The position numbers and the translations under genes were made by a program. Below, piece by piece: positions 10,814 to 33,111 of a stretch of DNA of 33,320 nucleotides. How positions within the stretch are numbered: position 1 is the first letter of the stretch; each line of letters starts with the position of its first letter. This DNA is from Bacteroidota bacterium (GTDB taxonomy: Bacteria > Bacteroidota > Bacteroidia > Chitinophagales > Saprospiraceae), in assembly GCA_011321935.1 (NCBI GenBank), contig DROJ01000332.1, positions 1 through 33,320 of the forward strand, written 5' to 3'. The notes below the pieces were generated by a model. It had not been told where the DNA came from and did not search any database. It saw nothing but the letters and a program-made list of their open reading frames with translations.

Positions 10814-11002
10814 AACAGTTGTCGTGATTAGTGATTAGTGACCAGTGATTAGTAGATTAGTGATTAGTAGATTAGTGACCAGTTATAGTGAACAGTGTTG
10901 ATAATACCCAACCACTGGTCACTAATCACTGGTCACTGATCACTAATCACTGGTCACTGATCACTGATCACTGATCACTGGTCACTGATCACGACAACTG
11001 TT
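10814..11002. repeat. Inverted heptanucleotide repeat array at the ruvA 3' end
   Basis: On the right, 10913-10989 is eleven in-register heptads of form CACTRRT (CACTGGT, CACTAAT, CACTGAT). On the left, about 10824-10880 holds the complementary words (GTGATTA, GTGACCA) with a few slips. The outer ends are also inverted: AACAGTTGTCGTGA at 10814-10827 is complemented by TCACGACAACTGTT at 10989-11002. That right end is the last 14 bases of the ruvA coding sequence, so the ruvA stop codon lies inside the repeat. Confidence 0.9.
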
Positions 11003-18007: not shown

Positions 18008-18254
18008 GTAACTGTTTAGTCCCCAACGAATCCCGAAGGGATTGAATGTGAATAGCCCCGGATTGCATCCGGGGGAAGCAGTAAAAGTGGGCGGCAACCC
18101 CGAAGGGGTTGAATATTGCCATTCACATTCAACCCCTTCGGGGTTGCCGCCCACCTTTACATCTTTTCCCCGGATTGCCTGCCTACCGGCAGGCAGGCAT
18201 CCGGGGCTATTCACATTCAATCCCTTCGGGATTCGTTGGGGACTAAACAGTTAC
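18008..18254. mobile_element. MITE-like 247-bp palindromic element with 8-bp target duplication
   Basis: The element begins GTAACTGTTTAGTCCCC and ends with the exact complement GGGGACTAAACAGTTAC. The complementarity continues inward over roughly 100 bp per side. It is flanked directly by identical 8-bp direct repeats, TAAAAATG at 18000-18007 and 18255-18262, as left by transposition. GTAA termini and 8-bp duplications are features of IS66-family elements, so mobilisation by such a transposase is possible, but this is an inference. Nested hairpins occur inside (CCCGAAGGG, CCCCGGAT/ATCCGGGG). No coding sequence is present, and the short ORFs across it are repeat artefacts. Confidence 0.85.
18179..18198. 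repeat. 20-bp mini-palindrome nested in the MITE
   Basis: CTGCCTACCGGCAGGCAGGC splits the loop of the right-hand CCCCGGATTGC/ATCCGGGG hairpin. The left-hand hairpin of the same element (about 18055-18075) lacks it and reads straight through CCCCGGATTGCATCCGGGG. Comparison of the two arms therefore shows an insertion of exactly 20 bp. Translated, this word gives the LPAGRQ strings often seen in Bacteroidota spacer ORFs. Confidence 0.75.
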
Positions 18255-29572: not shown

Positions 29573-29737
29573 CTAATCACTAATCACTGCTCTACTAATC
29601 ACTAATCACTGTTCTACTAATCACTGCCCTACTAATCACTAATCACTGCTCTACTAATCACTGCTCTACCAATCACTAATCACTGCTCTACTAATCACTG
29701 CTCTACCAATCACTAATCACTAATTTACCAATCACTA
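29573..29737. repeat. CTAATCA/CTGCTCTA tandem array between natA and natB
   Basis: The array is built from the heptad CTAATCA (once or twice) plus the octad CTGCTCTA, giving alternating 15 and 22-bp units, about eight in all, up to a few bases before the natB ATG. TAGAGCAG just before it (29561-29568) is the inverse of CTGCTCTA. The same heptad in the opposite orientation follows natB. The array would lie in the natAB message. Confidence 0.9.
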
Positions 29738-29741
29738 AAAA

Positions 29742-31064
29742 ATGAATAAATTAGGTTTAATTATCCAGCGTGAATATTTGACAAGGGTCAAAAAGAAAAG
29801 TTTTATCCTATTGACCTTGCTTGCGCCGCTCATATTTGTAGCGCTGTTCACGGTGCCCGCATTGCTGGCCGTATATGCCGGAAAAGAAACAAAGACGGTC
29901 GCCGTGAAAGACCCTTCCGGCATTTTTGTGCCGCCCAAGGACACTACCAAAAGAGTCCGCTATGAACTGCGGAGCGAGCCACTGGACGAGCTAAAAGCCC
30001 GTTATAAAAAAATGGGCTACGACGCTGTGCTGTACATCCCTTCCCTGCCCGATTCGGGGGACAGGAAAATGGAAGTATATTATTTTTCCGAAGGGCAATT
30101 GTCGCTCGGCACAAAATCGAGCATCGAGAGAAGGATCGCTTCGAGCGTGGAGGACTACAATATAAAACGGTCGGGTTATGACGAGGAGGTACTGAAAAAT
30201 TTCCGGCCGGACGTTTCACTAAAACAAAAAGAACTGACCCTGAACGAGGCCGGCGAACTGGTGGAAAAAGACAAGCAGAACAGTGCCGGCATCGCCACTG
30301 CAATCGGTTTTGTTGCCGGGTTCATCATTTACATGGTACTGATGATTTACGGCACGATGATAATGCGCTCGGTGATGGAGGAAAAAACGAACCGCATCGT
30401 GGAGGTCATCATTTCGTCGGTCAAGCCGTTCAAATTGATGCTCGGAAAAATCATCGGCGTGAGCGCAGTCGGCCTTACCCAAATGCTCATCTGGCTGGTA
30501 ATGACCATTGCGCTGATCTCGGTGGTCGGCATGTTCATCCCCATGGATCAAATGGCGGAGGCACAGCAGGGGATGCAGGGACCGCCGCCCGAAGAAATGT
30601 CGGCAGTAATGGAAAATTTGAACGCGCTGAAATCCCAAAATTGGGGCTATATCATTCCGGTTTTTCTGTTCTATTTTATTGGGGGCTACTTTATTTATGC
30701 CTCCCTTTTTGCTGCCGTTGGCTCGGCAATGGGCGACGACATGGGCGAGAGCCAACCCATCACTTTTGTGGCCATGGCACCTATCATTATCGCCATCGTC
30801 CTCATCAGCCCGGTCATTGAAAACCCGACGAGCCCGCTGGCTACTTGGATGTCCATTGTACCGTTGTTTTCTCCGGTGCTGATGCCAGCAAGGTTGGCCT
30901 TTGAACCACCGCTTTGGGAACTGCTACTTTCGATGACTGTGCTTGCCGCTGCCGCTTTTTTCTTTGTCTGGCTGTCGGGAAGGATTTACCGGGTGGGTAT
31001 TTTGATGTATGGAAAAAAAGTGACGCTGAAGGAACTGGGCAAGTGGCTGTTTTATAAGGAGTGA
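29742..31064 (+). CDS. ABC exporter permease (NatB-like, ABC-2 type)
   Basis: A 440-residue ABC-2 permease. An N-terminal helix follows the IQREYLTRVKKKSF motif common in this family (helix about 20-42). A large extracytoplasmic domain follows (about 43-180), then about five membrane segments between 185 and 425 (for example GIATAIGFVAGFIIYMVLMIYG and WGYIIPVFLFYFIGGYFIYAS). NRIVEVIISSVKPFKLMLGKIIG is the conserved coupling region of NatB-like permeases. It forms an exporter with the upstream ATPase. Its TGA stop is the TGA of the first heptad (GTGATTA) of a downstream repeat array, so the gene is bracketed by heptads in opposite orientations. Confidence 0.92.
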   Translation: MNKLGLIIQREYLTRVKKKSFILLTLLAPLIFVALFTVPALLAVYAGKETKTVAVKDPSGIFVPPKDTTKRVRYELRSEPLDELKARYKKMGYDAVLYIPSLPDSGDRKMEVYYFSEGQLSLGTKSSIERRIASSVEDYNIKRSGYDEEVLKNFRPDVSLKQKELTLNEAGELVEKDKQNSAGIATAIGFVAGFIIYMVLMIYGTMIMRSVMEEKTNRIVEVIISSVKPFKLMLGKIIGVSAVGLTQMLIWLVMTIALISVVGMFIPMDQMAEAQQGMQGPPPEEMSAVMENLNALKSQNWGYIIPVFLFYFIGGYFIYASLFAAVGSAMGDDMGESQPITFVAMAPIIIAIVLISPVIENPTSPLATWMSIVPLFSPVLMPARLAFEPPLWELLLSMTVLAAAAFFFVWLSGRIYRVGILMYGKKVTLKELGKWLFYKE

Positions 31065-31112
31065 TTAGTGGATCAGTAGATCAGTGATTAGTGATTAGTA
31101 ATTAGTGATTCG
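31061..31112. repeat. GTGATTA heptad array starting at the natB stop
   Basis: GTGATTA, GTGGATCA, GTAGATCA, GTGATTA, GTGATTA, GTAATTA and GTGATTC follow each other from the natB stop codon. This is the complement of the CTAATCA heptads upstream of natB and matches the array at ruvA. Confidence 0.85.
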
Positions 31113-31231: not shown

Positions 31232-31292
31232 TTTTAAAATTTGAGGTGATGCCTTTGCGTGGGGATGGAGGGAGGAAAGGCGTTGCCTCAAA
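31232..31292. repeat. Inverted first copy of the 67-bp array unit
   Basis: The stretch TTTGAGGTGATGCCTTT...AAAGGCGTTGCCTCAAA has the same hairpin arms as the downstream units. Its loop reads GCGTGGGGATGGAGGGAGG, the complement of the CCTCCCTCCATCC loop of the others, so this copy is inverted relative to the array. Confidence 0.8.
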
Positions 31293-31628
31293 TTCCCCTG
31301 CTCATTTTTGAGACAACGCCTTTCCTCCCTTCGTCTATGCGCAAAGGCATCGCCTCAAATTCCCCTGCCCATTTTTGAGGCAACGCCTTTCCTCCCTCCG
31401 TCCACGCACAAAGGCATCGCCTCAAATTCCCCTGCTCATTTTTGAGGCAACGCCTTTCCTCCCTCCGTCCACGCACAAAGGCATCGCCTCAAATTCCCCT
31501 GCCCATTTTTGAGGCAACGCCTTTCCTCCCTTCGTCTATGCGCAAAGGCATCGCCTCAAATTCCCCTGCTCATTTTTGAGGCAACGCCTTTCCTCCCTCC
31601 ATCCACGCGCAAAGGCATCGCCTCAAAA
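31287..31628. repeat. Tandem array of five 67-bp hairpin units
   Basis: CTCAAATTCCCCTGC begins at 31287, 31354, 31421, 31488 and 31555, an exact 67-bp period, with a final partial CTCAAA at 31622. Each unit holds a hairpin with 17-bp arms (TTTGAGGCAACGCCTTT and AAAGGCATCGCCTCAAA, two mismatches), a pyrimidine-rich loop and a 14-base linker. Copies differ at a few places (GCTCATT or GCCCATT; TTCGTCTATGCGC or CTCCGTCCACGCAC). Because 67 is not a multiple of three and no long frame spans it cleanly, it is not coding. The rest of the spacer, 31629-31753, is the SPFH gene leader. Confidence 0.93.
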
Positions 31629-31690
31629 AACGGAAAAAGCATGATCCCGATCAATTGGCAGAACAATCAAGGCCGCCCATCGAAAAAAAC

Positions 31691-31721
31691 TTGCTTTTTA
31701 CGATTCAATTAAATATCTTTA
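31691..31721 (+). promoter_or_regulatory. Candidate promoter of the SPFH gene
   Basis: TTG at 31691-31693 and TATCTTTA at 31714-31721, with a 20-base spacer, approximate the Bacteroidota -33/-7 consensus (TTTG and TAnnTTTG, one mismatch in the last base). They lie about 30 bp before the ATG. Confidence 0.4.
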
Positions 31722-31753
31722 TGTCATTATTTTAATATCAAAATAAAACTATC

Positions 31754-32605
31754 ATGCAAGAAAAAAATGTTCGTCCAATTTCAGGTTATATTGTATTGCT
31801 GGTTTGGTTGGCCATGGTTGCGGGGGCAGTTTATTTATTTACAAGCCACCGGGTACTTTTAGCAATGCTGTTGGCGGTGCTGGCCGTGTTCACCATGATC
31901 GGCTTCTTTTTTATCAACCCGAACGGGTCGGTGGTGCTGACGCTGTTCGGCGAGTACAAGGGCAGTGTAAAGCACAACGGTTTCTTTTGGGTCAACCCGT
32001 TTTTCGCAAAAAAATCCATCTCCCTGCGTGCCCGCAACTTTGAGAGCGAACGGGTAAAAGTGAACGACAAGCGCGGCAACCCCATCCTCATCAGCGTCAT
32101 CACGGTGTGGCGGGTAAAAGACACTTTCAAGGCCGCTTTTGACGTGGACAAATACGAACACTTCGTGATGGTGCAGAGCGATGCTGCCGTGCGGCATTTG
32201 GCGGGCATCTATTCTTACGACAATTTTGACGACGAGCAGGAAGAAATAACTTTGCGCTCCGGCATGGAAGAAATCAACCATGCCCTCGAAAGAGAACTCG
32301 GCGAACGCCTCTCCATTGCCGGCATCGAGGTCATGGAATCGCGGATCGGGTATTTGGCATATGCCGAAGAAATAGCGAGTGCCATGCTAAAACGCCAACA
32401 GGCCGAGGCCATCGTGGCCGCCCGTTTCAAAATAGTGGAAGGCGCCGTGAGCATGGTCGAAATGGCCCTCGAAGACCTTTCAAAAAAAGACATCATCCAT
32501 TTGGACGAGGACAAAAAAGCCGCCATGGTCAGCAACCTCATGGTCGTGCTTTGTGCCGATAAAGAAGCCACTCCCGTCCTGAACACGGGCACGCTGCACC
32601 AATAA
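31754..32605 (+). CDS. SPFH-domain membrane protein
   Basis: A 283-residue protein with two N-terminal membrane helices (about 11-30 and 33-54), then FFINPNGSVVLTLFGEYKGSVKHNGFFWVNPF, which is the start of an SPFH (stomatin/prohibitin/flotillin) domain. It continues through RNFESERVKVNDKRGNPILISVITVWRVKD and ends with a helical region around EEIASAMLKRQQAEAIVAARFKIVEGAV. Such proteins form membrane-bound ring or cage assemblies and are linked to membrane organisation or protease control, but the specific role here is unknown. A small ribbon-helix-helix protein follows, an arrangement I recall from other Bacteroidota. Confidence 0.9.
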   Translation: MQEKNVRPISGYIVLLVWLAMVAGAVYLFTSHRVLLAMLLAVLAVFTMIGFFFINPNGSVVLTLFGEYKGSVKHNGFFWVNPFFAKKSISLRARNFESERVKVNDKRGNPILISVITVWRVKDTFKAAFDVDKYEHFVMVQSDAAVRHLAGIYSYDNFDDEQEEITLRSGMEEINHALERELGERLSIAGIEVMESRIGYLAYAEEIASAMLKRQQAEAIVAARFKIVEGAVSMVEMALEDLSKKDIIHLDEDKKAAMVSNLMVVLCADKEATPVLNTGTLHQ

Positions 32606-33037: not shown

Positions 33038-33111
33038 GGGGGATTAGCTCAGTTGGCTAGAGCGCTACGCTGGCAGCGTAGAGGTCATCGGTTCGAATCC
33101 GATATTCTCCA
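33038..33111 (+). tRNA. tRNA-Ala (anticodon GGC)
   Basis: The cloverleaf is complete: acceptor GGGGGAT with ATTCTCC (two G-U pairs), D stem GCTC/GAGC, anticodon stem CTACG/CGTAG with loop CTGGCAG giving anticodon GGC, and T stem ATCGG/CCGAT around TTCGAAT. The discriminator is A. The following bases are CAT, so the 3' CCA is not encoded and must be added enzymatically. It reads GCC and GCU alanine codons. Confidence 0.95.

What the first reader, a model, noticed from the sequence alone, without database searches (positions are those of the whole stretch)
31232..31628. 67-bp hairpin-unit tandem array with an inverted leading copy
Seen: exact 67-bp period over five units plus an inverted unit at the front. 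Units fall into variants that alternate in the linker (GCTCATT or GCCCATT) and loop, which suggests higher-order duplication and conversion. Each unit can fold into a 17-bp stem. It lies between a strong terminator and the SPFH promoter. Inference: possible variable-number locus, structured RNA, or binding array.
Basis: seen in the sequence. Interest (0 to 1): 0.6.

Follow-up and report, generated by a model that had tools for sequence, protein, structure and literature searches.

The report
Tandem-expanded copy of dispersed palindromic repeat
The 67-base repeats are one locally multiplied copy of a palindromic DNA repeat that is scattered about 90 times or more over this bacterium's genome; many of its sister copies sit inside mini-transposons, but nothing found here shows that the array itself does anything for the cell.

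Summary
In detail: an inverted 55-nt unit (31238-31292) is followed by five direct units at an exact 67-bp period, ending at 31627. It is not a stand-alone structure. The unit occurs at least 93 times at 47 or more places in the same Saprospiraceae genome, typically as a head-to-head pair (28 of 28 inverted neighbours are -/+), that is, one long palindrome. In the array, "3' arm + loop + unit" of such a pair was copied in tandem: the repeat frame starts exactly in the inverted unit's 3' arm, a near-direct repeat of every later 3' arm, so slippage or unequal exchange between arms gives the 67-bp step. Sister species OFTM40 has the same genes, terminator and promoter but no array (164 against 689 bp intergenic). 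About 18 of 28 pairs carry ends GTAACTGTTCAGCA; elements with these ends have 8-bp target duplications: ISBst12-group (IS66 family) MITEs. The window array has neither ends nor duplication and is not filed as a MITE. Other arrays occur, one in frame inside a polyketide-synthase-like gene. Nothing supports a structured RNA, binding array or regulation. Copy number is uncertain: the 633-contig draft breaks at these repeats.

The parts
29742..31064 (+). ABC transporter permease-like gene upstream; orthologue in OFTM40 (L176)
   Evidence: ORF; 78% DNA identity to L176
31191..31227 (+). intrinsic terminator of the permease gene, conserved in OFTM40
   Evidence: 16-nt arms 94% complementary + T run; alignment
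31238..31292 (-). inverted palindromic unit; left arm of the original head-to-head pair
   Evidence: (I1-I5): 94% complementary to the last direct unit, 85-91% to the others
31293..31306 (.). 14-nt loop between inverted and first direct unit; same sequence recurs as the linker of every later unit
31276..31610 (+). five 67-bp tandem repeats in register, starting in the 3' arm of the inverted unit
31307..31359 (+). direct unit 1 (loop type A)
31374..31426 (+). direct unit 2 (loop type B)
31441..31493 (+). direct unit 3 (loop type B)
31508..31560 (+). direct unit 4 (loop type A)
31575..31627 (+). direct unit 5 (type B'); best match to the inverted unit, probably its original partner
   Evidence: (I3, 94%)
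31611..31627 (+). terminal 3' arm AAAGGCATCGCCTCAAA that closes the array
31682..31753 (+). conserved upstream (promoter) region of the SPFH gene, untouched by the array
   Evidence: alignment with OFTM40
31754..32605 (+). SPFH-domain gene (283 aa), downstream neighbour
   Evidence: 83% identical orthologue

Best explanation
The array is a selfish-type palindromic repeat that lies between a terminator and the next promoter and expanded in place. Shown: the usual form elsewhere in the genome is a head-to-head pair of about 53-nt imperfect palindromes (-unit, loop, +unit). In such a pair the 3' arm of the inverted unit and the 3' arm of the direct unit are near-identical direct repeats (15 of 17 nt here), one unit plus one loop apart, here 67 bp. 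Inferred: slippage or unequal exchange between these arms, probably helped by hairpin extrusion during replication, added a 67-bp 'loop + unit' each time, giving five copies that end in a single arm. Arms of one palindrome are kept alike by template switching or conversion. Many sister pairs are carried inside ISBst12-group (IS66 family) MITEs with ends GTAACTGTTCAGCA, which explains much of the dispersal; the window copy belongs to a form without these ends, so how it arrived is not known. No function for the cell is inferred.
For: Unit dispersed: 94 matches in the own genome; 93 units at 47 loci, adjacent orientations 28 -+, 10 ++, 5 --, never +-. Array register starts at 31276 in the inverted unit's arm and closes with one arm. 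The inverted unit matches the last unit best. Empty orthologous site in sister species OFTM40 with terminator and promoter conserved. Palindrome arms evolve together: variable core 0.83 identical within pairs, permuted 0.704 +/- 0.013, maximum 0.75 of 5000; same change in both arms 57 times, shuffled 18 +/- 4, maximum 38. TIR-bounded elements: TSD match 6.5 of 8, shuffled 3.25 +/- 0.23; 16 of 44 perfect at length 8, 3 at length 7, none at 9-12. Complete IS66-family ISs with the same ends in relatives: L161, L163; relatives with variant ends and perfect 8-bp TSDs: L164, L165, L168. ISDge4 (ISBst12 group, seen to transpose) has ends GTAACTGCTCAGCA / GTGACTACTCAGCA and an 8-bp repeat (PMC12898284).
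Against: The window copy lacks the GTAAC ends and any 8-bp target duplication, so its arrival as an insert is inferred from the empty site alone; loss from OFTM40 is not excluded by one outgroup. No close transposase homologue was found in the own assembly, which has 633 contigs. The slippage model does not by itself explain the order A, B, B, A, B' or the linker alternation; later exchange between copies is needed. Other arrays have periods (87, 76, 99, 117 bp) that are not simply unit + loop, so they took in flanking DNA.
Confidence: 0.82

Rival explanations
1. REP/BIME (REPIN) system: the units are REPs moved by a RAYT (TnpA-REP) transposase, and the array is a REPIN cluster.
For: Imperfect extragenic palindromes in head-to-head pairs with tandem clusters that include flanks look like REPINs (PMC3116915; PMC3733652). 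The genome has four Y1_Tnp genes.
Against: No unit lies within the 2-3 kb fetched around any of the four Y1_Tnp genes; one of them (L012) has its own, different hairpins, 8 x CGGACGGAAGTCCG. The unit has no GTAG or CGTC tag at its foot and is longer (53 nt) than REPs (20-40 bp). TIR-bearing copies show 8-bp target duplications, which fit a DDE transposase.
Confidence: 0.12
2. Structured RNA or attenuator in the 5' region of the SPFH gene.
For: Strong folding (z = -15); minus-strand hairpins 98% paired counting G.U (546 + 115 of 672 cells).
Against: Lies between a terminator and a conserved promoter region, so probably little transcribed; absent in OFTM40; no Rfam family; short-hairpin changes are one-sided (38 against 1); pairs occur in divergent, tandem and convergent gene contexts.
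Confidence: 0.04
3. Protein-binding array (for example a nucleoid, gyrase or IHF-like site) that is selected for its number of copies.
For: BIMEs in other bacteria bind such proteins (stated in the abstract of PMC2817692); conserved arm sequence in all units.
Against: No conservation of the array at this place; conservation of arms is equally expected for a recently spread repeat.
Confidence: 0.04
4. Assembly artefact (wrong number of copies).
For: Draft of 633 contigs; a dozen or so contigs end at or within about 100 bp of a unit.
Against: Units differ at diagnostic positions and the flanks on both sides are unique and syntenic with OFTM40; an artefact would change the count, not the existence.
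Confidence: 0.1

Closest known systems
REPINs / BIMEs (head-to-head REP doublets, with tandem clusters)
   Same: Two inverted imperfect palindromes with a loop as the spread unit; tandem clusters including flanks; arms alike within a pair; mostly extragenic; some in-frame intragenic copies (PMC3116915, PMC3733652).
   Different: No GTAG/CGTC tag, 53-nt unit, no RAYT gene near any unit; TIR-bearing copies have 8-bp target duplications.
MITEs of the ISBst12 group, IS66 family (cf. ISDge4, PMC12898284)
   Same: Ends GTAACTGTTCAGCA match the ISDge4 end GTAACTGCTCAGCA at 13 of 14 nt (some copies at 14 of 14), 8-bp target duplication, no gene, dispersed.
   Different: Applies to TIR-bearing sister copies and to window 18008-18254, not to the array, which lacks ends and target duplication; interiors are long palindromes of several unrelated families.
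REP dimers nested in 'target palindromes' (A. variabilis GTAG-15, H. neapolitanus CGTC-1; PMC3733652)
   Same: A palindromic dimer sits inside an unrelated outer palindrome.
   Different: Here the outer palindrome also occurs alone and with other interiors and has transposon-type target duplications.
Rickettsia palindromic elements / intragenic REPs
   Same: At C501 (L016) three tandem units are read in frame inside a large gene.
   Different: Other sequence; tandem period 99 bp = 33 codons; only one clear intragenic case here.

Membership tests
IS66/ISBst12-type MITE (window array) | terminal inverted repeats starting GTAA at both outer ends | tested here: not met
   no GTAACTGTTCAGC-like end beside 31238 or 31627
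IS66/ISBst12-type MITE (window array) | 8-bp target-site duplication | tested here: not met
   flanks of 31238-31629 share no 8-mer at the ends (read)
IS66/ISBst12-type MITE (TIR-bearing sister elements) | GTAACTGTTCAGC ends and 8-bp TSD | tested here: met
   44 elements, mean 6.5 of 8, 16 perfect, peak only at length 8
IS66/ISBst12-type MITE (TIR-bearing sister elements) | autonomous IS with the same ends | tested here: inconclusive
   found in other Saprospiraceae (L161, L163); in the own genome only a 1720-bp IS66-like IS with ends GTAAGTACTCAATAG (L084); no close transposase homologue
REP/BIME (REPIN) | head-to-head pairs of imperfect palindromes | tested here: met
   28 of 28 inverted neighbours are -/+
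REP/BIME (REPIN) | GTAG or CGTC tag at one foot | tested here: not met
   consensus GAGGCAACGCCTTT...AAAGGCATCGCCTC has no such tag at its ends (definition)
REP/BIME (REPIN) | RAYT gene flanked by the repeat | tested here: not met
   four Y1_Tnp loci without units nearby; draft genome, so absence is not final
CRISPR array | identical repeats with different spacers and cas genes | tested here: not met
   linkers are all the same sequence but for one position; cas genes not searched
known RNA family | match to an Rfam model | tested here: not met
   only a tRNA at 33038-33111
VNTR | copy number differs between isolates | not testable with these tools
   no second isolate of the species held; sister species has no array

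The most novel reading that the evidence does not exclude
One ISBst12-type transposition system in this lineage carries many unrelated long palindromes: the same 14-nt ends with 8-bp target duplications bracket at least four unrelated palindromic interiors and bare hairpins down to 41 bp. The ends would act as a general carrier that picks up and spreads hairpins, the window's repeat being one cargo that later lost the ends and multiplied in place.
Probability: 0.2. Interest if true: 0.62.

Novelty: new variant of a known kind. Interest (0 to 1): 0.38.

Why it matters
The array itself is ordinary genome litter. The family behind it is more useful: it gives a clean natural case of palindromes whose arms evolve together, shows how a head-to-head palindrome can turn into a regular tandem array through its own arms, and documents ISBst12-group MITEs with very diverse palindromic cargo in Saprospiraceae, a group whose small repeats seem little described (no paper found for ISBst12 + MITE in the held library).

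Tried and rejected
RAYT partner: four Y1_Tnp genes found, none beside a unit. Own-genome autonomous IS with the same ends: TIR pairs 0.7-4.5 kb apart were scanned in all held loci, none with a matching target duplication and a transposase; PF03050 gives two distant IS66-like genes only. Unit in other genera: none in 150 family genomes sampled with the pair probe other than the own one; in the genus only the own genome and OFTM40 of 14. Rfam: nothing but a tRNA. Idea that the linker CCCCTGCTCA is a remnant of the TIR (CCTGCTGAACAG): possible, but the loop of C320 (L043) holds a similar stretch in the other orientation and without TIR, so it was not used as evidence. Literature: no paper found on these repeats.

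Full report
Observation. The array is real. Five direct units at an exact 67-bp period (31276-31627 in TRF register, 93% matches, no indels) follow an inverted unit at 31238-31292 that is 85-94% complementary to them. In register the repeat is AAAGGC(ATC/GTT)GCCTCAAA - TTCCCCTGC(T/C)CATT - TTTGAGGCAACGCCTTT - loop. The first of the five copies begins inside the inverted unit's own 3' arm (it carries GTT where all later copies carry ATC), and the array ends with a single arm at 31611-31627. The linkers alternate T/C as reported, but the loop types run A, B, B, A, B'.

The unit is a dispersed repeat. A search of the window's own genome (6.74 Mb, 633 contigs) gave 94 matches. In the stretches fetched, 93 units at 47 loci were parsed; neighbours are -/+ in 28 cases, ++ in 10 and -- in 5, never +/-. 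The normal form is therefore a head-to-head pair with a 13-24 nt inner gap (between the 47-nt cores): one long palindrome made of two imperfect palindromes. The family is narrow: no match outside the own genome in a sample of 150 family genomes with a pair probe, and within the genus only in this genome and in Saprospiraceae bacterium OFTM40 (15 matches).

The array arose in this lineage or was lost next door. OFTM40 has the orthologous permease and SPFH genes (SPFH 83% identical). There the intergenic region is 164 bp (L176:2350-2513), against 689 bp here; the terminator and about 70 bp upstream of the SPFH start align, and the array is absent. The array thus sits between a conserved terminator and a conserved promoter region, a place where an insert does least harm.

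How the array grew (inference from anatomy). In every -/+ pair the two 3' arms read almost alike on one strand (here AAAGGCGTTGCCTCAAA and AAAGGCATCGCCTCAAA), one unit plus one loop apart. Misalignment between them adds exactly 'loop + unit'. At this locus that distance is 67 bp, which is the period; each linker is the loop; the array ends in one arm; and the inverted unit is most like the last direct unit (94%), as expected if the extra copies were added between the original partners. The A, B, B, A, B' order needs later exchange among copies. Other loci have arrays of their own with other periods (C360 87 bp, C348 76 bp, C501 99 bp, C525 117 bp), so expansion recurs, in several cases with flanking DNA included.

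Palindrome arms evolve together. The variable middle of the two units is 0.83 identical within a pair; when partners are permuted it is 0.704 +/- 0.013 (maximum 0.75 in 5000). The same departure from consensus appears on both arms 57 times, against 18 +/- 4 after shuffling. Within a single unit's short hairpin, changes are one-sided (38 against 1). The structure that is kept is the long palindrome. Template switching in quasi-palindromes is a known mechanism that makes arms alike (PMC7202029, PMC8794818), so no selection has to be invoked; common descent of whole pairs from several source copies also contributes.

How the family spreads. About 18 of 28 pairs have further inverted ends GTAACTGTTCAGCA(GG) on at least one side, some of them degenerate. 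This end motif occurs 268 times with up to three mismatches in the genome, against 59 for the reversed control. Among 44 elements bounded by it, the eight flanking bases agree at 6.5 positions on average (shuffled 3.25 +/- 0.23), 16 are perfect, and exact agreement peaks at length 8. GTAA ends and 8-bp duplications are features of the IS66 family (established knowledge; an example in PMC12898284). Complete IS66-family elements with a single transposase gene and these ends exist in other Saprospiraceae (L161, L163: 1511 bp, GTAACTATTCAGC / GTAACTGTTCAGC; L164, L165, L168 with variant ends and perfect 8-bp duplications). ISDge4 of the ISBst12 group, seen to transpose in Deinococcus geothermalis, has ends GTAACTGCTCAGCA / GTGACTACTCAGCA and an 8-bp repeat (PMC12898284). 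The TIR-bearing copies are therefore best read as ISBst12-type MITEs. Their interiors fall in at least four unrelated palindromic groups (11, 6, 5 and 2 members) plus single ones and bare hairpins of 41-57 bp; five of these short forms keep GCATCACCTC or its complement, so they look like deletion derivatives of the unit pairs.

The window copy is not filed as a MITE. It has no GTAAC end and no target duplication. Pairs without TIR have longer inner gaps on average (13-24 against 13-19 nt, Mann-Whitney p = 0.013), which hints at a separate subfamily; one of them (L043) shares much of the window's loop in inverted orientation. How this subfamily moved is open.

Comparison with REPs. The anatomy is that of a REPIN/BIME: head-to-head palindromes, tandem clusters with flanks, rare in-frame copies in genes (PMC3116915, PMC3733652). 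Tag and RAYT association were tested and not met. It resembles a REPIN cluster in anatomy; it is not shown to be one.

Limits. The genome is a draft that breaks at these repeats, so copy numbers are lower bounds and the count of five may be wrong. Coding context was judged with a simple ORF method. One outgroup locus cannot fully separate gain from loss.

Noticed in passing
window 18008-18254: A complete 247-bp palindromic element with GTAACTGTTTAG ends and a perfect 8-bp target duplication (taaaaatg), interior unrelated to the 67-bp unit; a sister is at L099 2041-2285 (gctttgac).
   Followed up: yes
L016 2009-2253 (C501:6308-6552): Three tandem units with a 99-bp period (33 codons) lie in frame inside a polyketide-synthase-like ORF of 1433 aa or more, adding FEAMPLRGxGGWKGVASNG... 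three times between domains.
   Followed up: partly
L012 1295-2231 (C48); two copies in the window: One of four Y1_Tnp genes is accompanied by eight hairpins CGGACGGAAGTCCG: probably a separate RAYT/REP system of this genome.
   Followed up: partly
window 10824-10992, 29579-29738, 31060-31110: Heptamer-type repeats GTGATTAGT / AATCACT in several intergenic regions; the one after the permease stop codon is absent from the OFTM40 orthologue.
   Followed up: partly
L084 390-2109 (C234): Intact 1720-bp IS66-like IS with ends GTAAGTACTCAATAG, perfect 8-bp duplication GAATTATG and a 539-aa transposase; next to it a 61-bp hairpin with ends GTAACTACCTACC and a 7 of 8 duplication.
   Followed up: partly
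L074 1142-1516: A 375-bp TIR element with a perfect 8-bp duplication in which another long palindrome appears to be nested: palindromes inserted in palindromes.
   Followed up: no
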